A stretch of 64,000 bases of DNA from Ensifer canadensis (GTDB taxonomy: Bacteria; Pseudomonadota; Alphaproteobacteria; Rhizobiales; Rhizobiaceae), in assembly GCF_017488845.2 (NCBI RefSeq), contig NZ_CP083370.1:744001-808000 (forward strand). The letters run 5' to 3'. The notes below the pieces were generated by a model. That model was not told the DNA's origin and did no database searches. It saw nothing but the letters and a program-made list of their open reading frames with translations. Made by a program: the position numbers and the translations under genes. The stretch's first letter is position 1. The number at the start of each line of letters is the position of its first letter. Of the stretch, positions 47,641 to 55,643 are shown in pieces.

Positions 47641-47960
47641 GGCAAACTCCGAGAACGCATAGCCTTTCATTGGCGCAGGAAACGCATCAGGCTCGGCCGG
47701 AATCACCCGGAGCAAGCGATGCGGCGTCCGGGTTAAGATCGCCTGCTTGCTTCGACCTTGCGGCGGCGCAGACGACGAGCCACCTCAAAAAATATGGCGA
47801 TCGGAGACATTGAAAGCCCCTGGCTCATACGTAATAGTTTCATTTGGGCATGATTGTGGGGCGTTGGCATCGTCCCGAAGTGCCGTCATTGGGGTTGTGC
47901 GCCTCCTCAATCCTGCTCCCGAGGAGTTGGTGGATAAGGGGTGACGCCGGAGGGAAGAGC
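47641..47960. other. Divergent region between a PilZ-type gene and the caspase gene
   Basis: 320 bp without a supported gene. It should hold promoters for both divergent genes. No clear palindrome seen. Confidence 0.4.
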
Positions 47961-50180
47961 ATGTTTTCGGGGCATTCGTCGCGCTGGCGGTCGTTCGTCA
48001 TTCTTTTGGTGGCGGTGTCGGCGTTTGCGCCGGCCGAGGTCTTGGCCGCAAAGCGCGTTGCCCTGTTGATCGGCAACGAAAAGTACGAAGCGACCTCGCA
48101 ACTCAACAATCCCGCCAATGACGTCGAACTGATGAAGGCTTCGTTCGAGGAGGCCGGCTTCGATTCCGTCACCACCGTTCATGACCTCGGGCGCCAGGAC
48201 ATGGTCAAGGCGCTGCGCGATTTTGAAGATCTGGCGACGGGCGCCGACGTGGCGATCGTCTACTATTCCGGCCACGGCATGGAAATGAACGGCCAGAACT
48301 TCCTGCTGCCGACCGATGTGCAATTGAAGACGGACAAGGATATCGAGGACGAGGCGATTGGCCTTGATCGGGTTCAGCGCTCGCTCGAGGGCGCAACGAA
48401 GCTCAAGCTGGTGATACTCGACGCCTGTCGCAACAATCCGTTCGAGCAAAGCATGACGCGCTCGATCTCGACGCGCGCAGTTTCGCGGGGCCTGGCGCGT
48501 GTCGAGCCGGAATCGGCCGACCTGCTTGTCGCTTTCGCTTCCAAGGCCGGAACAGTGGCGCTTGATGGCGAGGGCAAGAACAGCCCGTTTGCCACCGCAC
48601 TTGCCAAATATCTCACCGAGCCGGGTGTCGATGTGCGAATCGCCTTGGGCAAGGTCCGCGATGAGGTGGTTTCGGTCACAAACCGCGGTCAGGAGCCCTT
48701 TGTCTATGGGTCGCTTGGCGGTGCGCAGATCTTCCTGAATATAAAGGAAGTGAACATCAACATCACGAATAACGGCGAGCAGCTCTCGCCGAACAGCCAG
48801 TCGGCTGCCGCTGCCGACTGGCAGAACATCCGCGATCTCGCCGACAAAGACCTGATCGATGCCTTTCTCGCCAAGCATGGGTCCGATCCCGTCTACAAGA
48901 TGTTGGCGGAGAAGAAGCTGAAGCTCCTGGCCGAGGCGGAGCAGATGTCGAGCGTGACCCCTGACGAGATCGCCTGGGATGCCCTCAAGCAATCGACCGA
49001 TGCCGCCGCGCTGACGCGGTTCCTCGAGCGCTATCCCGACAGCAAGCATAAGGCAGAGGCCGAGCAGCAGATCGCCGCCCTCGAACCACAAAAGGGCCTC
49101 AACATCTCGCAGACCGGCAAGGACACGCAGGCTTCGCGCGACTGCTATCTGCTGGCAGGTGAACCTCAGTCGATGCCCGGCTTCGTTGGTGTGAATTTCT
49201 TGAAGCTTGATTCCGCCCGCGCACTGACGGCCTGCGCCCAGGCGGTCAACGAAAACCCGGATGACATGATGCTCGTCAATATGTTGGGCCGGGCACAGGA
49301 TGCCGGACGCGACTATGTCGAGGCACGCCACAATTATCAAAAGGCCGCCGACGGCGGCAATATGTACGCGTTGACCAATCTGGCATGGTTCTCCGTTTAC
49401 GGCACCGATGGCGCCGTCGATGTCGACCAGGGCCGCCGGATGTTCGAGCAAGCAGCCAAGGCCGGCAATGCCTATGGCCAGGCATCGCTCGGCTGGCTCT
49501 ATCGCGAGGGCTATGGCGGCATCGCCCAGGATTATGATGAAGCGGCCAGATGGTACCAACTGGCCGCCAACCAGGGTTACGCCAACGCGATGGCGACGGT
49601 GGCCTGGTTCTACAGAGAGGGCCTCGGCCTGCCCAAGGACCTGACGCAGTCGCTGTCGTGGTACAAGAAGGCCGCCGAAGGTGGCGACGTCAACGCGATG
49701 TCGTCGCTCGGTTGGGCCTACCAGAACGGGCTCGGCACCGAGCAGAACTATGTCGAAGCCAAGACCTGGTATGAAAAGGCGGCCAATGTCGGGGATTCCT
49801 ATTCCATGGCATTGCTCGGCTGGTTCTACGATATCGGCACCGGCGTCACCCAGGACTATGCTCAGGCCCGCACCTGGTACGAGATGGCGGCGAATGCCGG
49901 CAGCGCCTACGCCATGGGAAATCTGAGCCGCCTTTATGACTATGGCCTGGGCACCAAGGCGGATGCGAAGGAGGCGGTGCGCTGGGCGGCAGCCAGCATC
50001 GAGGGCGGCGATCCGGCCAAGCTTCAGGAGTTGAAGTCCCAGCCGAGCAATTTCACGCCGGCCTTCCGCAAGGAAATGCAGGCGCTATTGAAGGATCGCG
50101 GTTTTTACAGTGGTCCTGTCGACGGGGACTTTGGCGCGGCAACGCTCGATGCGATCGATAGGCTTTCGCGAAAGTCATAG
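47961..50180 (+). CDS. Secreted caspase-like protease with Sel1 repeats and C-terminal peptidoglycan-binding-like domain
   Basis: A 739-residue protein. Residues 1-29 are a signal peptide. Residues about 30-250 form a C14 caspase-type domain with LLIGNEKY, catalytic His105 (YYSGHGMEM) and Cys156 (ILDACRNNPF), both intact. A linker follows, then about six Sel1 repeats from around residue 440 (for example GQASLGWLYREGYGGIAQDYDEA). The last 40 residues (MQALLKDRGFYSGPVDGDFGAATLDAI) look like a PG_binding_1 domain. An enzyme acting in the periplasm or at the cell wall is suggested; activity is untested. The longer upstream frame is rejected because the signal peptide defines the start. Confidence 0.85.
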   Translation: MFSGHSSRWRSFVILLVAVSAFAPAEVLAAKRVALLIGNEKYEATSQLNNPANDVELMKASFEEAGFDSVTTVHDLGRQDMVKALRDFEDLATGADVAIVYYSGHGMEMNGQNFLLPTDVQLKTDKDIEDEAIGLDRVQRSLEGATKLKLVILDACRNNPFEQSMTRSISTRAVSRGLARVEPESADLLVAFASKAGTVALDGEGKNSPFATALAKYLTEPGVDVRIALGKVRDEVVSVTNRGQEPFVYGSLGGAQIFLNIKEVNINITNNGEQLSPNSQSAAAADWQNIRDLADKDLIDAFLAKHGSDPVYKMLAEKKLKLLAEAEQMSSVTPDEIAWDALKQSTDAAALTRFLERYPDSKHKAEAEQQIAALEPQKGLNISQTGKDTQASRDCYLLAGEPQSMPGFVGVNFLKLDSARALTACAQAVNENPDDMMLVNMLGRAQDAGRDYVEARHNYQKAADGGNMYALTNLAWFSVYGTDGAVDVDQGRRMFEQAAKAGNAYGQASLGWLYREGYGGIAQDYDEAARWYQLAANQGYANAMATVAWFYREGLGLPKDLTQSLSWYKKAAEGGDVNAMSSLGWAYQNGLGTEQNYVEAKTWYEKAANVGDSYSMALLGWFYDIGTGVTQDYAQARTWYEMAANAGSAYAMGNLSRLYDYGLGTKADAKEAVRWAAASIEGGDPAKLQELKSQPSNFTPAFRKEMQALLKDRGFYSGPVDGDFGAATLDAIDRLSRKS

Positions 50181-50304: not shown

Positions 50305-50488
50305 GCTCGGTCCTGTTCGTCTCGCATTGCTGCCGCTCTCGACCACAGTCGAACCGCTGCTTCCCGTGAGTCTTCGGCCGCGTGAGGGGCTTGGTTCCCC
50401 CGGTGCCCACATGAAAATGCGATCATTTCCCGGAAACCGACAAAAAAATCTTGCATTGCCTGCGGTCTGACACTAGTCAGGCGCTAAC

Positions 50489-50578
50489 GGAGAGGTGGCC
50501 GAGTGGTCGAAGGCGCTCCCCTGCTAAGGGAGTATACCCGGAAGGGTATCGAGGGTTCGAATCCCTTCTTCTCCGCCA
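50489..50578 (+). tRNA. tRNA-Ser (anticodon GCT)
   Basis: A 90-nt class II tRNA with an acceptor stem GGAGAGG / CTTCTCC, encoded CCA, D-arm region GGCCGAGTGGTCGAAGGC, anticodon loop CTGCTAA (GCT, reading AGC/AGU), a long variable arm (ATACCCGGAAGGGTAT) and the T-arm GGGTTCGAATCCC. Confidence 0.95.
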
Positions 50579-51233
50579 TCACCTTCCAAGGTTGAATTTT
50601 CCCACTCGTCGCATCTCGGTCATCGGCTGATGGGTCTCGTCTTTACCCATGTGACATCGGTCTAGTCGCGAGCGGGAAAACACTCGCAGCGCCATTCGCG
50701 CCAATGTTCATGAATCTCCTCGGCTTTTCTCCGCTCAGAATCAGGCGCTGCGCACGATCAACTGCGAATCTCGCAAATTGATTCTGGTGATTCCCGCTGT
50801 CGGAGGGGCAACCCGCAATGTCGATTCTGAGAAATGTGGCGATGCAGCACGTCGCTCCTTCCAAGGAATTTGGCAGCCGGACCGGCGTTTCCCCCCAATT
50901 TGGGCCGCTTTCTGCCTCTTTCTGAAACAGGAGATGCCACTTGTCCTTACGCTAAGCTCAAGGGAATAAAGGCTTTTCTTAATCCTTTGTTAATTTTCTC
51001 GGGCCGCATGCGGCGATTTTGTGTCGTTTCAGCAACAGGGTTCGGCGAAGGGCGAGGCAAAGCACGCGATCTCATCAGTTGGACGTTGCGCCGATGACCG
51101 CGTCTTGTATTTTCAAATCCGGAAGCAAGGGCGGTTGATCGTCCGACTTCTTGAACGTTGGGGATGGGGCAGGGAACGCTGTCCTTCAGCAAAATACCCA
51201 GACCCGTTTGAAACTTTTGACTGGAGGTCAGAA
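50579..51233. other. 655-bp region upstream of the first porin gene
   Basis: No supported gene. AT-rich stretches near 50966-51000 (CTTTTCTTAATCCTTTGTT) could belong to the porin promoter, and the leader may be long. Small frames such as 50834-51097 are not protein-like. Confidence 0.45.
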
Positions 51234-52289
51234 ATGAACATCAAGAGCCTTCTTCTCGGCTCCGCTGCAGCTCTCGCAGCAGTTACCGGCGCACAGGCAG
51301 CCGACGCAATCGTCGCCGCCGAACCGGAGCCCATGGAATACGTTCGCGTTTGCGACGCTTTCGGCACTGGCTACTTCTACATCCCGGGCACCGAAACCTG
51401 CCTGAAGCTCAGCGGCTTCATCCGCGTTCAGGGCTCGTTCGGTCGTGACGCTGCTGACAGCCGTTACAACCAGGAAGACTTCACCTTCGGTGGCCTCCCG
51501 GGTCAGTCCACGTCGGACTGGGATGTCTTCTCGCGCGCTTACGTCGCATGGGATGCCAAGAGCGACACCGAGTACGGCACGCTCACCGGCTTCTTCGCTG
51601 CTGAATTCAATGCCGACAACGACACCGACTCTGGCGATAGCGACTTCATCGACGTTGATGAAGCCTACATCCAGCTCGGTGGCCTGAAGGCCGGTTTCTT
51701 CTACAACTGGTGGGATAAGGGCATCAACGGCGAAACCGACACGCTCGGCAACGTCACCGAGTTCAACTCGATTGCCTACCTCTATGACGGCGGCACCTTC
51801 CAGGCCGGTATCTCGATCGACGAGCTCGAAGGCTGGTCCACCAAGGCAAACGGCGTTGGCATCTCCGGTATCGTTTCGGCTTCGCTCGGCGGCGTTTCCT
51901 TCGACTTGCTCGGCGGCTACGACACCGAGTGGGAAGAAGGCGCGATCCGCGGCTTGCTCTCTGCAGACCTCGGCCCGGGCGTCTTCCAGCTTGCTGGTAT
52001 CTGGGCTTCGAACCCGAACACCTACTGGGCTCAGTCTGAGTGGAGCGTTGCTGCTTCGTACCGCTTCAACGCAACTGACAAGCTGGCGATCACTCCTGGC
52101 GCTCAGTACTTCGGTAGCCTGCAGGATTCGCTCACCAGCTTCGGCGGCGACGATGCATGGCGCGCTGGCGTAACGGTTGACTACAAGATCACCGAAGGCC
52201 TCGCTACCCGCGTATCGGTTCAGTACGAAGATGAAGACAACGGCGACGACCAGGTATTCGGCTTCGTCCGCCTGCAGCGCGACTTCTAA
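51234..52289 (+). CDS. ropA: Outer-membrane porin, RopA type (copy A)
   Basis: A 351-residue porin of the Porin_2 family common in Rhizobiales. Signal peptide 1-22 (ending GAQAAD), conserved CDAFGTGYFYIPGTETCLKLSGFIRVQ with a Cys pair, and beta-barrel strands ending in FVRLQRDF with a C-terminal aromatic residue. It is almost identical to the porin at 53478 apart from a loop after QGSFG (residues about 71-90), LQDSLT versus LQDSVN near the end, and one signal-peptide residue. The GGAGG ribosome site sits between TTGAC and GTCAG. Confidence 0.93.
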   Translation: MNIKSLLLGSAAALAAVTGAQAADAIVAAEPEPMEYVRVCDAFGTGYFYIPGTETCLKLSGFIRVQGSFGRDAADSRYNQEDFTFGGLPGQSTSDWDVFSRAYVAWDAKSDTEYGTLTGFFAAEFNADNDTDSGDSDFIDVDEAYIQLGGLKAGFFYNWWDKGINGETDTLGNVTEFNSIAYLYDGGTFQAGISIDELEGWSTKANGVGISGIVSASLGGVSFDLLGGYDTEWEEGAIRGLLSADLGPGVFQLAGIWASNPNTYWAQSEWSVAASYRFNATDKLAITPGAQYFGSLQDSLTSFGGDDAWRAGVTVDYKITEGLATRVSVQYEDEDNGDDQVFGFVRLQRDF

Positions 52290-52290
52290 T

Positions 52291-52303
52291 CTGACTTAGT
52301 CAG
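52291..52303. promoter_or_regulatory. CTGACTTAGTCAG palindrome after porin A
   Basis: Near-perfect palindrome directly after the porin A stop. A related one, CTGACC-TC-GGTCAG (54546-54559), follows porin B, and CTGAC...GTCAG surrounds the porin B ribosome site. Meaning unknown. Confidence 0.35.
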
Positions 52304-52315
52304 GTTTGATATCAG

Positions 52316-52343
52316 GCCCGCAACTCACATTAGAGTTGCGGGC
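52316..52343 (+). terminator. Terminator of porin A
   Basis: Perfect 11-bp stem GCCCGCAACTC / GAGTTGCGGGC with a 6-nt loop, 26 nt after the stop, followed by TGTTGCTGTTT. Confidence 0.8.
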
Positions 52344-52469
52344 TGTTGCTGTTTAGCAACGTTTGCATGTCGTCTCGACACAGGACGATGTCCAGACACC
52401 AAGCGCCGGCTTGAAAGCCGTCGGTTTATCGGTCTCACTCCGGCGTCAGTCGGCAAGGGGATCGGCGAG

Positions 52470-53402
52470 TTGGGGAAGGATGCTGAAAAACAAGCGGGCG
52501 ACTTCGACTTCCCGAACCTAAGTAGCGGGTACGAAGTCCACTACAGCTTTAGCCCGCGGGGTCCGAGCGGGGTGGTTAAGGACACCACGCTCGCCGAACT
52601 GCTTCAGCGTTATGCCGACATTCTGTGGGAGGAAGGCAACCACAAATACAATGTGAAAGCCTTCATCGGAGAACTCGACGAGATATTGCTCGCTGCTCGC
52701 TTCTCTACTTTCTCACAAGACATGCTCGACAACCTGATCGGCGCTTTACGCAAACGTCGCAACAGCAACGCAACCATCAACCGGAAGATGGCGGCGCTAA
52801 GCAAGTTGCTGCGGAAAGCGTACAAAATGGGCGACATCTATAGCTTGCCGGAGTTCAAGCGCCAGAAAGAAAGAGCGGGACGCCTCCGCTTTCTCGAACC
52901 GGACGAAGAAGAAGCGCTGTTTCGCGAAATCGGAAACCGCTCAGACCTCTATCTAAAACTATCCATATTCCTCGTCGATACCGGCGCACGTCTCGGCGAG
53001 ACCATCGCTCTGAAATGGAATGACGTTCACCAGGGCCGGGTGACGTTTTGGGTAACCAAATCTGGCCGCAGTCGAACTGTACCCCTAACCGCCAGAGCCA
53101 AGCAGGCTCTTAATGCCCTGGTGGATCGATCTCCGGGTCCATTCGCGTCCATTGACCAGCAAAAGTATCGCGCCGTTTGGAATGACGCAAAAACAGCAGC
53201 CGGACTGGGAGACGAGGCCGATATCGTACCGCACGTCTTGCGCCATACTTGCGCGTCACGCTTGGTGAGAGGCGGTATCGATCTCAGACGCGTTCAGATG
53301 TGGCTGGGTCACCAGACCCTCGAGATGACGATGCGTTATGCTCACCTGGCATCCCACGATCTGGACATGTGTGTACCCGTCCTTGAACGCCATATTACAT
53401 GA
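52470..53402 (+). CDS. Tyrosine recombinase (phage-type integrase) between two porins
   Basis: A 310-residue site-specific recombinase. N-terminal SAM-like core-binding region (about residues 38-120) and the catalytic domain with Arg174 (TGARLGE), Lys197 (VTKSGRSR), His255 and Arg258 (HVLRHTCA), His281 (WLGHQTLE) and Tyr290 (MRYAHL), so the active site looks complete. The start given is TTG; no earlier ATG is in frame, so the true start is uncertain. Its composition appears less GC-biased at third positions than neighbours. It is the only recombinase in the window and no att sites, phage genes or transposase surround it. XerC/D-like housekeeping is unlikely by location. Confidence 0.85.
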   Translation: MGKDAEKQAGDFDFPNLSSGYEVHYSFSPRGPSGVVKDTTLAELLQRYADILWEEGNHKYNVKAFIGELDEILLAARFSTFSQDMLDNLIGALRKRRNSNATINRKMAALSKLLRKAYKMGDIYSLPEFKRQKERAGRLRFLEPDEEEALFREIGNRSDLYLKLSIFLVDTGARLGETIALKWNDVHQGRVTFWVTKSGRSRTVPLTARAKQALNALVDRSPGPFASIDQQKYRAVWNDAKTAAGLGDEADIVPHVLRHTCASRLVRGGIDLRRVQMWLGHQTLEMTMRYAHLASHDLDMCVPVLERHIT

Positions 53403-53440
53403 GCGAGTTCGCCCGGCCGTCAGTCTGGGGTTGACGATAA

Positions 53441-53467
53441 CAGTCAGAACAGTCCTGATTCTGACTG
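53441..53467 (+). promoter_or_regulatory. Inverted repeat upstream of porin B, possible leader switch or operator
   Basis: Perfect 9-bp arms CAGTCAGAA and TTCTGACTG around a 9-nt spacer, ending 10 nt before the ATG (with the ribosome site between). The right arm can also pair with GTCAG just before the ATG, putting the ribosome site in a loop (CTGAC-TGGAG-GTCAG). The two pairings exclude each other. A TTGACG at 53431 could be a -35 box; if transcription starts at about 53466 the left arm would not be in the RNA. Confidence 0.5.
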
Positions 53468-53477
53468 GAGGTCAGAA

Positions 53478-54539
53478 ATGAACATCAAGAGCCTTCTTCT
53501 CGGCTCCGCTGCAGCTCTCGCAGCAGTATCCGGCGCACAGGCAGCCGACGCAATCGTCGCCGCCGAGCCGGAGCCCATGGAATACGTTCGCGTTTGCGAC
53601 GCTTTCGGCACTGGCTACTTCTACATCCCGGGCACCGAAACCTGCCTGAAGCTCAGCGGCTTCATCCGCGTTCAGGGCTCGTTCGGTTCTGAGGCATCGC
53701 AGAGCCGTTACAACCAGGCGAACCATGACTTCGACGGTGACGGCTTCAACGATCAGTCCACGTCGGACTGGGATGTCTTCTCGCGCGCTTACGTCGCATG
53801 GGATGCCAAGAGCGACACCGAGTACGGCACGCTCACCGGCTTCTTCGCTGCTGAATTCAATGCCGACAACGACACCGACTCTGGCGATAGCGACTTCATC
53901 GACGTTGATGAAGCCTACATCCAGCTCGGTGGCCTGAAGGCCGGTTTCTTCTACAACTGGTGGGATAAGGGCATCAACGGCGAAACCGACACGCTCGGCA
54001 ACGTCACCGAGTTCAACTCGATTGCCTACCTCTATGACGGCGGCACCTTCCAGGCCGGTATCTCGATCGACGAGCTCGAAGGCTGGTCCACCAAGGCAAA
54101 CGGCGTTGGCATCTCCGGTATCGTTTCGGCTTCGCTCGGCGGCGTTTCCTTCGACTTGCTCGGCGGCTACGACACCGAGTGGGAAGAAGGCGCGATCCGC
54201 GGCTTGCTCTCTGCAGACCTCGGCCCGGGCGTCTTCCAGCTTGCTGGTATCTGGGCTTCGAACCCGAACACCTACTGGGCTCAGTCTGAGTGGAGCGTTG
54301 CTGCTTCGTACCGCTTCAACGCAACCGACAAGCTGGCGATCACTCCTGGCGCTCAGTACTTCGGTAGCCTGCAGGATTCCGTCAACAGCTTCGGCGGCGA
54401 CGATGCATGGCGCGCTGGCGTAACGGTTGACTACAAGATCACCGAAGGCCTCGCTACCCGCGTATCGGTTCAGTACGAAGATGAAGACAACGGCGACGAC
54501 CAGGTATTCGGCTTCGTCCGCCTGCAGCGCGACTTCTAA
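53478..54539 (+). CDS. ropA2: Outer-membrane porin, RopA type (copy B)
   Basis: A 353-residue porin, nearly identical to the copy at 51234. From 53754 to 54379 it matches 51504 to 52129 with only one difference seen (C at 54326, T at 52076), and it matches again to the stop. The main protein difference is the short loop after QGSFG (GSEASQ... versus GRDAAD...), which lies in the region expected to be an external loop. It lies 75 bp after the recombinase gene, so its promoter is short or shared with it. Signal peptide and C-terminal Phe are intact. Confidence 0.93.
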   Translation: MNIKSLLLGSAAALAAVSGAQAADAIVAAEPEPMEYVRVCDAFGTGYFYIPGTETCLKLSGFIRVQGSFGSEASQSRYNQANHDFDGDGFNDQSTSDWDVFSRAYVAWDAKSDTEYGTLTGFFAAEFNADNDTDSGDSDFIDVDEAYIQLGGLKAGFFYNWWDKGINGETDTLGNVTEFNSIAYLYDGGTFQAGISIDELEGWSTKANGVGISGIVSASLGGVSFDLLGGYDTEWEEGAIRGLLSADLGPGVFQLAGIWASNPNTYWAQSEWSVAASYRFNATDKLAITPGAQYFGSLQDSVNSFGGDDAWRAGVTVDYKITEGLATRVSVQYEDEDNGDDQVFGFVRLQRDF

Positions 54540-54566
54540 TCTGATCTGACCTCGGTCAGTTTAGAG

Positions 54567-54593
54567 AAGCCCGGCTTTCGAGCCGGGCTTTTT
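54567..54593 (+). terminator. Terminator of porin B
   Basis: Stem AGCCCGGCT / AGCCGGGCT with a TTCG tetraloop and TTTTT after it, 28 nt after the stop. Confidence 0.9.
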
Positions 54594-54655
54594 CGTTTGG
54601 CGCTTTCCATAAAGGAAATGCGATCTCAGGCGGGAGCGCAGGCGCGCGTTCGCTG

Positions 54656-54762
54656 CTACAGCGCCGCGCGTCCTATTAGACGCGCAAAGGTCGCCGTAGC
54701 ACTTTGAATTGCTGCATGTTTTTATCCTTAAATCGAATAGGATTTAAGGAAACATGCAGTGG
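54656..54762 (+). repeat. RIME1 element, copy 4, overlapping a gene end
   Basis: CTACAGCGCCGCGCGTC ... GACGCGCAAAGGTCGCCGTAG, then TGCATGTTTTTATCCTTA ... TAAGGAAACATGCAG. The stop codon of the hydrolase gene (54744-54746, minus strand) lies inside its right arm, so the last codons (CMFP, stop) come from the repeat. Confidence 0.9.
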
Positions 54763-55643
54763 TGAACAAAGGCGGCTATGGCATGCCTGGGGCCGTCGAG
54801 ATGCAGCAGCGGTGCATGGCCTTGTCCGGCGGCTGTCACGGTCGTCAAGTTGGGATGCCTGCTCTTCATCTCATCGACCGTGGTGCTTGACAGCAGCTTG
54901 GAATGTTCGCCGCGAACGACCATCATCGGAAGCCCGGTAAAGGCGTGGAACTGGGGCCAAAGATCCGGCAGCAACATGTCCGACGTCAGCGCCTGCAGTT
55001 GTGCCGCAATTGCTGGATCGAAGTCGACGACAGGAATGCCGCCTTCGTCGCGATAGATCGCCCTTGCCATCTGCAGCCATTCGACCTCGTGAAGGATCGG
55101 GAAATCGTCTCCGTGTATGGCTTTCAGGTAGTTGGGCGCTGCGGTCCAACTTACCGGTCCGGTCCCTGTGTTGAGATAGTCCCGGATCCCGAGCAATCCC
55201 CCGATTTCGATGACAGGCCCGATGTCATTGAGCACGGCCCCTGCTATCAAGCCGGGGGCCAGGCCGATCAAATGGTGCAGGATCAGCCCACCACGTGAGG
55301 TGCCGATAAAAATTGCCTTTTCAATAGCGAAATATGCGCACGCGGTGATGACGTCGGACGTTTCGACTGCAACCGTATAGCGACTCTTATCGCCGTCGCG
55401 TTCCGAATTCCCGCGGCCACGGTAGTCCAATGAGATAACGGGGTGCCCGCCTCCCGACGACGATGCAAGAAAGGTGGCAAGTTGGTGAAAGTCTCGGCTG
55501 TTGCGCGTGAGCCCTGGCAGGCAGATAACCGGAGTTGCCGCACGTGGCTGAGGCCCAGGTCCGTAGGCCCGCGCGTAGAGCTGCAATCCGCCAACCCCGG
55601 GGAAGCGATGTTCCCGAAACGCATCCGCCCCATACTCGTTCAT
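54744..55643 (-). CDS. Alpha/beta hydrolase
   Basis: A 299-residue hydrolase: oxyanion-hole area CLPGLTRNSRDFHQLA, SLDYRGRGNSERD, nucleophile Ser in GTSRGG and catalytic His in GQGHAPLL; the acid is probably in the MVVRGEHSKLL region. Similar proteins hydrolyse esters or lactones, so the substrate is open. The start at 55643 is chosen over 55661 and a TTG at 55703. The C-terminal end (about four residues and the stop) lies in a RIME element. Confidence 0.85.
   Translation of the reverse strand: MNEYGADAFREHRFPGVGGLQLYARAYGPGPQPRAATPVICLPGLTRNSRDFHQLATFLASSSGGGHPVISLDYRGRGNSERDGDKSRYTVAVETSDVITACAYFAIEKAIFIGTSRGGLILHHLIGLAPGLIAGAVLNDIGPVIEIGGLLGIRDYLNTGTGPVSWTAAPNYLKAIHGDDFPILHEVEWLQMARAIYRDEGGIPVVDFDPAIAAQLQALTSDMLLPDLWPQFHAFTGLPMMVVRGEHSKLLSSTTVDEMKSRHPNLTTVTAAGQGHAPLLHLDGPRHAIAAFVHHCMFP

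What the first reader, a model, noticed from the sequence alone, without database searches (positions are those of the whole stretch)
51234..54539. Two almost identical porins with a tyrosine recombinase between them
Porin A and B share about 626 bp (51504-52129 and 53754-54379) with one base difference noticed, and again match to their stops. The main protein difference is a short loop after QGSFG. Seen directly. The intact recombinase in the 1.2 kb between them is unusual for an operon-free porin pair. A testable idea is that recombination or gene conversion between the copies keeps the body uniform and lets the loop vary, possibly helped by the recombinase.
Basis: partly seen in the sequence, partly recalled or inferred. 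Interest (0 to 1): 0.7.

Follow-up and report, generated by a model that had tools for sequence, protein, structure and literature searches.

The report
Recombinase-driven porin switch in rhizobia
A small unit made of an outer-membrane pore gene and a DNA-recombining enzyme sits between another pore gene and its leader; the same pairing across soil and plant bacteria of this family looks like a genetic switch that swaps which surface pore, a known docking point for phages, is made.

Summary
In detail: two PF02530 porins (one difference in the 626-bp block, different first loop) flank an intact tyrosine recombinase. What it missed is the key: a 17-bp palindrome, TYTGAC-TGGAG-GTCAGA, containing the porin ribosome-binding site, lies at both ends of the porin A+recombinase unit as a direct repeat. 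The unit occurs again, alone, elsewhere in this genome and on Ensifer/Sinorhizobium megaplasmids, with junctions at that spacer. Ten of 12 tested congeners align through the empty site. So the unit is a mobile cassette that enters at the resident porin's start, takes its leader and displaces it.

Across the family the recombinase is porin-linked (141 of 147 non-redundant loci examined). Most often two divergent porins carry inverted sites around a segment (592-1420 bp in 85 of 86) with the conserved leader at one end. In 1,880 of 1,880 locus pairs with segment homology (not independent), orientation follows which porin the leader faces; the tree forces at least 11 changes. This looks like site-specific inversion choosing the expressed porin. 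Nine paper searches listed no description. The porin (RopA1 in S. meliloti) is a reported phage receptor, so phage escape is the likely use (inferred). Population switching, circles and expression are untested.

The parts
50489..50578 (+). tRNA-Ser(GCT); lies inside the invertible segment in 61 of 86 divergent loci of relatives, but outside the unit here
50880..51215 (+). conserved porin leader / presumed promoter region (the P end), now reading into porin A
   Evidence: 85-89% DNA identity running into the porin of congeners; last 40 bp identical in 12 of 14 fetched recombinase-less congener loci (L035, cut by a contig end, and L040 showed no site); promoter itself not mapped
51216..51232 (+). 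left recombination site TTTGAC-TGGAG-GTCAGA over the porin A ribosome-binding site
   Evidence: junctions of ectopic copies fall in its spacer
51234..52289 (+). porin A (cassette porin), PF02530
52315..52344 (+). terminator-like hairpin between porin A and the recombinase
   Evidence: consensus match only
52470..53402 (+). tyrosine recombinase, 310 aa, PF00589
53441..53467 (+). extra inverted arm CAGTCAGA...TCTGACTG at the 3' (N) end of the cassette, also present in the E. adhaerens and S. meliloti cassettes
   Evidence: read; fold; role unknown
53460..53476 (+). right recombination site TCTGAC-TGGAG-GTCAGA over the porin B ribosome-binding site
53478..54539 (+). porin B (resident porin, displaced from its leader), PF02530
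   Evidence: continuity with congeners' porin and downstream region
54568..54589 (+). terminator-like hairpin after porin B
   Evidence: read directly; not listed by the scan

Best explanation
The window holds a site-specific porin switch. SHOWN: porin A + recombinase form a unit of about 2.25 kb with a 17-bp site at each end; the unit occurs, alone, in unrelated places with junctions at the 5-bp spacer of that site; in most examined relatives the same recombinase lies beside two divergent porins whose sites are inverted, and the segment between them is found in both orientations; one end of each segment carries the conserved leader. INFERRED: the recombinase recognises the palindrome and exchanges strands in TGGAG. 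With direct repeats (here) it excises or integrates the cassette, so that the resident leader drives either cassette porin A (present state) or resident porin B. With inverted repeats (most relatives) it flips the leader between two porins. Because the site lies over the Shine-Dalgarno sequence, each product keeps a complete leader, RBS and start codon: one porin on, the other silent, never none. Likely benefit: changing the surface loops of a major porin that phages bind, with gene conversion keeping the barrel common to both copies.
For: Site at both ends. Unit alone on own contig C2, 97.6% over 2253 columns, flanks without similarity. E. adhaerens G008 has porin-rec-porin on its chromosome and the unit alone on a 736-kb plasmid, 2279 bp at 99.96%, the one mismatch lying in the left arm. 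Ectopic junctions in four contexts: left TTTTGTC or TTTTGAC + TGGAG-GTCAGAAATG; right GATTCTGAC + CTAAA-GTCTAG or TAGCA-GTCA (the S. medicae right flank is altered next to an IS630). Empty site: in 10 of 12 tested recombinase-less congeners (14 fetched) one alignment runs through the predicted join. Linkage: 140 of 394 family genomes and 47 of 109 genera carry the recombinase; 141 of 147 non-redundant loci have a porin directly upstream. Inversion: 962/962 same-state pairs align in the same orientation and 918/918 opposite-state pairs inverted, with the leader masked; in 10 of 10 chosen opposite-state pairs the segment matches inverted (66.9-92.8%) and not direct (48.5-54.3%); at least 11 changes forced by starred branches. 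In 98 of 105 two-site loci the leader score is >=20 at one end and <=11 at the other. N-end arms co-vary as palindromes, 289 of 348 positions against 229 in shuffles, maximum 250. RopA1 is reported as a phage receptor and as essential despite ropA2 (passages in PMC10132094 and PMC6421345), as expected if only one copy has a promoter.
Against: No reads, so no proof that one culture holds both states; no circle seen; promoter and expression not measured. State is clustered on the tree (14 changes against 23.8 in shuffles, 0 of 500 as low), so flipping is not so fast as to be random between species; the tree carries long-branch warnings. Porin 5' 200 bp are 89.9-99.5% alike between the compared loci, so homologous recombination could invert the segment too, and in 8 of the 10 pairs porin bodies show no clear side fidelity. 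No empty counterpart was found for the ectopic insertions. Six of 147 loci have no porin called directly upstream. In 7 of 105 loci the better end has a weak leader score of 10-15. The 17-mer persists in congeners without the recombinase.
Confidence: 0.78

Rival explanations
1. Ordinary tandem duplication plus gene conversion; the recombinase is a passenger integrase and inversions in relatives come from homologous recombination between inverted porin copies.
For: A/B bodies nearly identical, columns 301-800 free of differences; porin 5' 200 bp are 89.9-99.5% alike between the compared loci and in 8 of 10 opposite-state pairs porin bodies show no clear side fidelity; a phage-resistant Agrobacterium isolate fused ropA1 and ropA2 by a 1,203-bp deletion (passage in PMC10132094).
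Against: Ectopic copies have junctions at the site spacer, in flanks with no similarity to the porin locus. The recombinase is kept beside porins in 141 of 147 non-redundant loci. In 2 of 10 pairs (L133/L127 and L202/L211) porin bodies stay on their side (87.6/85.9 against 80.7/81.9; 78.8/76.7 against 70.9/71.1) while the segment is inverted.
Confidence: 0.12
2. A mobile element that merely carries a porin and hits the porin start because its target resembles the palindrome; mobility is selfish and switching is a by-product.
For: Unit is self-contained and found alone in four contexts, with near-identical copies on two replicons of one genome.
Against: In most examined relatives the locus is a divergent porin pair with an inverted site pair (87 of 147 non-redundant loci classed as divergent only), an arrangement that flips rather than moves; a single leader end per locus is maintained in 98 of 105 two-site loci.
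Confidence: 0.25
3. The palindrome is a translational control hairpin over the RBS, not a recombination site.
For: It is retained in 12 of 14 fetched congener loci without the recombinase; a T-G wobble keeps the P-end arms pairable.
Against: RNA folding gives no significant structure at the left site (z +1.0) and weak at the right (z -1.1); junctions of ectopic copies fall inside it. Both roles may coexist.
Confidence: 0.05

Closest known systems
Phase-variable promoter invertons driven by tyrosine recombinases (fimS with FimB/FimE; Bacteroides promoter invertons) - recalled
   Same: Linked tyrosine recombinase, short inverted repeats around a segment with one leader end, both orientations found
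   Different: Leader faces one of two porins, so the switch is either/or rather than on/off; sites lie over the RBS; tRNA-Ser(GCT) lies in the segment in 61 of 86 divergent loci; in this window the sites are direct repeats and the unit is mobile
Single-expression-site surface protein switching (Mycoplasma pulmonis vsa with HvsR; Campylobacter fetus S-layer inversion) - recalled
   Same: One promoter, several promoterless surface genes, recombination near the 5' end
   Different: Two porins per locus as a rule; unrelated host, site and proteins; the cassette carries its own recombinase
Integrative mobile elements / gene cassettes with integrase
   Same: Self-contained unit, specific junctions, empty chromosomal site
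   Different: About 2.25 kb with one cargo porin; inserts between leader and start codon so as to replace an expressed gene; below the integron-integrase cut-off
PinQ serine-recombinase inversion blocking phage T2 adsorption (PMC12529663; abstract and outline seen)
   Same: Recombinase-driven inversion linked to porins used as phage receptors
   Different: Serine recombinase, prophage genes; there the receptor is blocked by another protein, not switched
Brucella omp2a/omp2b paired porins - recalled
   Same: Two linked porins of this type, gene conversion
   Different: No recombinase-driven switch known to me; not tested here

Membership tests
Porin_2 (PF02530; RopA/Omp2 type) | Pfam gathering score passed | tested here: met
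   348 bits against cut-off 22 for both porins
Tyrosine recombinase (PF00589) | Domain and conserved R, K, HxxR, H, Y | tested here: met
   99.5 bits; residues invariant in 14 sequences
XerC/XerD | NCBIfam equivalog cut-off | tested here: not met
   XerD 87 bits against 330, XerC 85 against 335
Integron integrase | NCBIfam cut-off | tested here: not met
   65 bits against 265
Invertible-promoter phase-variation locus | Inverted sites flanking a segment carrying one promoter-like end (in relatives) | tested here: met
   86 divergent two-site loci; promoter-like means the conserved leader, no promoter mapped
Invertible-promoter phase-variation locus | Inverted sites in the window itself | tested here: not met
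   Sites are direct repeats here: the window's own copy is a cassette, not an inverton
Invertible-promoter phase-variation locus | Both orientations exist | tested here: met
   Across species: 58 against 28 of 86 divergent loci; 918/918 opposite-state pairs inverted
Invertible-promoter phase-variation locus | Reversible switching within a population with an expression change | not testable with these tools
   No reads or expression data
Integrative mobile cassette | Defined junctions at a core site, and empty sites | tested here: met
   Junctions; empty chromosomal site in 10 of 12 tested congeners. Empty ectopic sites not found
Integrative mobile cassette | Circular intermediate | not testable with these tools
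   Needs PCR

The most novel reading that the evidence does not exclude
A family-wide either/or switch of the major porin, which is a phage receptor, run by a dedicated tyrosine recombinase at a site fused to the porin's ribosome-binding site. In Ensifer/Sinorhizobium it has become a mobile receptor-replacement cassette that can leave, re-enter or enter another replicon and take over the resident porin's leader: transmissible receptor switching.
Probability: 0.55. Interest if true: 0.9.

Novelty: new variant of a known kind. Interest (0 to 1): 0.82.

Why it matters
RopA1 is reported essential in S. meliloti although a close homologue, ropA2, is present (passage in PMC6421345), and is reported as the receptor of phage M9 and at least 10 others (passage in PMC10132094). 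A recombinase-chosen single expressed copy would explain why the second copy does not help, and makes phage-resistance switching in inoculant rhizobia directly testable by PCR. It also predicts a concealed switchable surface in many genera of the family, and shows a recombination site that is also a ribosome-binding site.

Tried and rejected
Considered and set aside: recombinase acting at the loop (no junction found there; the palindrome CAGTCCACGTCGGACTG after the loop is within conserved coding sequence); integron or Xer origin; a known RNA family in the leader (only the tRNA was found at 50400-54800); the RBS hairpin as sole role. Empty counterparts of the ectopic insertions: none found for the pSymA, NER9, W2-A or own C2 sites; a second, partial copy of the W2-A left flank on the same plasmid stops well short of the junction. 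A pattern search for unoccupied attB-like sequences in 16 genus genomes gave one near match, in G004, not followed. Solved structures by sequence: two chance-level matches for the porin; 20 for the recombinase profile, integrases and Xer recombinases first. The AlphaFold model of porin B was poor (mean pLDDT 61); it only suggests that the variable stretch lies between the first two strands; no fold search was run. Two Brucella papers that mention omp2a/omp2b (PMC4081994, PMC5596481; passages) use the genes for typing and describe large chromosomal inversions, nothing on a porin switch.

Against my reading and kept in: orientation state is clustered on the tree and the tree has long-branch warnings; porin bodies keep their side clearly in only 2 of 10 opposite-state pairs; six of 147 loci have no porin called directly upstream (L099, L165, L168, L233, L259, L262; in L233, L259 and L262 the recombinase lies within about 300 bp of a contig end; in L099 a short porin ORF overlaps the 5' part of the recombinase ORF and failed my rule). 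Rows dropped: 15 duplicate loci of 162 before counting; L106 and L168 because the script could not check their orientation; loci without two usable sites, leaving 105. Of 14 fetched recombinase-less congener loci, L035 and L040 were not given. The 80 regions were chosen from the matches for room on the contig and are not a random sample; 22 of 147 loci show a porin upstream but no second one. The site pattern used demanded GGAGG, so conservation of the spacer is partly built in. The pairs are not independent. The output was cut; I rely instead. Confidence in the best explanation was lowered from 0.80 to 0.78, and the homologous-recombination rival raised to 0.12, on recounting.
Full report
OBSERVATION. 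The two porins and the recombinase are as described. The 626-bp block differs at one base (52076), and 21 of the 28 A/B differences lie in the 100 columns that hold the first loop. The aligned congener porins also vary by substitutions and indels in that stretch. The window belongs to the Ensifer group (inferred): its congener G008 has a contig C3 of 735,709 bases that agrees in length and in the place of the recombinase with E. adhaerens plasmid NZ_CP083351.1.

THE SITE. The repeated unit begins at a 17-mer 1 nt before each porin ATG: TTTGAC-TGGAG-GTCAGA (51216-51232) and TCTGAC-TGGAG-GTCAGA (53460-53476), the only two matches within 3 mismatches in the window. In the whole genome they are the only matches with 0 or 1 mismatch; C2 has one with 2, and five 2-mismatch copies of another repeat exist. 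The 17-mer contains the Shine-Dalgarno GGAGG. The left copy follows a leader (CCTTCAGCAAAATACCCAGACCCGTTTGAAACTTTTGAC) that is the same in 12 of 14 fetched recombinase-less congener loci; in the other two (L035, at a contig end, and L040) the script found no site. The right copy follows cassette sequence ending GATTCTGAC.

MOBILITY. The own genome has the unit a second time on contig C2, 97.6% identical over 2253 columns and with no similarity in the flanks. G008 has porin-recombinase-porin on its chromosome and the unit alone on its plasmid; the two units match over 2279 bp with one mismatch, in the left arm. NER9 pA and S. meliloti/S. medicae plasmids, mostly named pSymA, have it too. In all four contexts the left junction is TTTTG(T/A)C followed by TGGAG-GTCAGAAATG. 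The right junction is GATTCTGAC followed by a different spacer, CTAAA or TAGCA, and then GTC. In S. medicae the right flank reads TAGTCATC next to an IS630 transposase. I read this as strand exchange across the 5-bp spacer. S. meliloti Ak57 (CP090106.1) carries porin+ rec+ porin+ rec+ porin- at a locus whose far flank matches the lytic-transglycosylase region beside the window's porins; its first porin-recombinase unit lies between leader and second porin, just as in the window.

EMPTY SITE. Of 15 same-genus genomes besides the own one, only G008 has the recombinase at E<=1e-30. For 12 of the 14 fetched recombinase-less congener loci I joined the window's flanks at the site in a script. In 10 of 12 one alignment runs through the join at 86-92%; in L036 and L039 the best alignment covers only the right part. 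G008, a carrier, does not span it, as expected.

THE FAMILY-WIDE SYSTEM. Relatives of the recombinase at E<=1e-40 occur in 140 of 394 family genomes and 47 of 109 genera. A scan of named genome contigs found 310 encoding stretches and kept 80. I annotated 162 loci, 147 after removing duplicates: 141 have a PF02530-type porin directly upstream of the recombinase on the same strand. The commonest layout is porin(-)-site(-)-segment-site(+)-porin(+)-recombinase(+): 87 of 147 are classed as divergent only. Convergent blocks and direct repeats are rarer, and 22 show no second porin in the stretch held.

INVERSION. In 105 loci with two usable sites I scored the 45 bases before each site against the window's leader. 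In 98 the better end scores 20 or more, and no worse end exceeds 11; in 7 the better end scores only 10-15. In 86 divergent loci the leader faces the partner porin in 58 and the recombinase-side porin in 28. With 130 bases at the leader end masked, every pair of segments with detectable homology agreed: 962 of 962 same-state pairs in the same orientation, 918 of 918 opposite-state pairs inverted (pairs share ancestry). In ten chosen opposite-state pairs the segment matches inverted at 66.9-92.8% and direct at 48.5-54.3% (for example L133 against L255: 92.8 and 50.6; L133 against L127: 85.3 and 52.8). In two of the ten the porin bodies clearly stay on their own side; in eight they do not tell. 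On the recombinase tree the state changes 14 times, at least 11 forced by starred branches. It is nevertheless more clustered than in shuffles (mean 23.8; 0 of 500 as low), so flips are not frequent on the scale of species splits. In six genera both states occur among the fetched loci. S. meliloti-labelled strains 4H41 and Ak57 hold the porin-recombinase-porin block in opposite orientation to their flanks, with homology starting and ending at the sites. One flank is only 92% alike, so they may be sibling species.

SITE COVARIATION. N-end arms co-vary as palindromes (TCT/AGA, ATT/AAT, GTT/AAC): 289 of 348 outer-arm positions complementary in 116 sites against a shuffled mean of 229 and maximum of 250. 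The P end shows a weaker excess, 233 of 351 in 117 sites against 215.5, maximum 224. Both sites of a locus share the same last three bases in 104 of 105 loci. Relatedness and gene conversion add to both counts.

GENE CONVERSION. A and B differ by 28 of 1056 bases and G008's pair by 96 of 1029, while counterparts between the two species differ by 119 of 1059 (B) and 140 of 1029 (A). The C2 copy differs from both A and B over part of the tract where A and B are identical, so A and B were homogenised after C2 separated, or C2 was converted from elsewhere.

EXPRESSION LOGIC (inferred). Porin A has the leader; a terminator-like hairpin separates it from the recombinase; porin B has only 57 bases between the recombinase stop and its site. 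Hence A on and B silent now; excision would put B on. The sigma-70 scan found no promoter-like site, which says little for an alphaproteobacterium; the promoter is not mapped.

LITERATURE. [quoted passage not shown] phage M6 also needs it (PMC6256558, passage; PMC6992544, passage). In Agrobacterium a phage-resistant isolate had recombined ropA1 and ropA2. The primary paper (Crook 2013) is not held. None of nine searches listed a paper whose title or abstract start describes a recombinase-porin switch in this family (at most 20 papers listed per search); subscription journals and preprints are not covered.

VERDICT. The parts are known kinds (tyrosine recombinase, porin, inverton). The combination - an RBS-embedded site, either/or porin choice, family-wide linkage and a mobile receptor-replacement cassette - is a new variant. 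Recombination at the site is well supported; switching in a population and its use against phages remain inference.

Noticed in passing
53441-53467: Cassette 3' end has an extra inverted arm (CAGTCAGA...TCTGACTG) that recurs in E. adhaerens and S. meliloti cassettes; perhaps an accessory recombinase site.
   Followed up: partly
50489-50578: tRNA-Ser(GCT) beside the switch; it lies inside the invertible segment in 61 of 86 divergent loci, in all 61 pointing away from the leader end, so a tRNA gene is inverted along with the leader. In the window it points towards the leader.
   Followed up: partly
51503-51521 and 53753-53771: Palindrome CAGTCCACGTCGGACTG directly after the variable loop, within coding sequence.
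   Followed up: no
L178:6001-11677: S. meliloti Ak57 carries two recombinases and three porins in one array, a possible multi-step shuffle.
   Followed up: partly
G000:C2:1791934 and four places on G000:C3: A different repeat, TCTGACTGGTGGACAGA, 2 mismatches from the site, occurs five times in the own genome; perhaps the end of an insertion element.
   Followed up: no
L231: Contig titled Bacillus subtilis SK6B4 groups with Pseudochrobactrum in the recombinase tree and is probably mislabelled or contaminated.
   Followed up: no
L164, L166: Two recombinase genes in opposite orientation between convergent porins.
   Followed up: no
47844-50180: ORF with a caspase-like N-terminal stretch and many Sel1-like repeats (by eye).
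   Followed up: no
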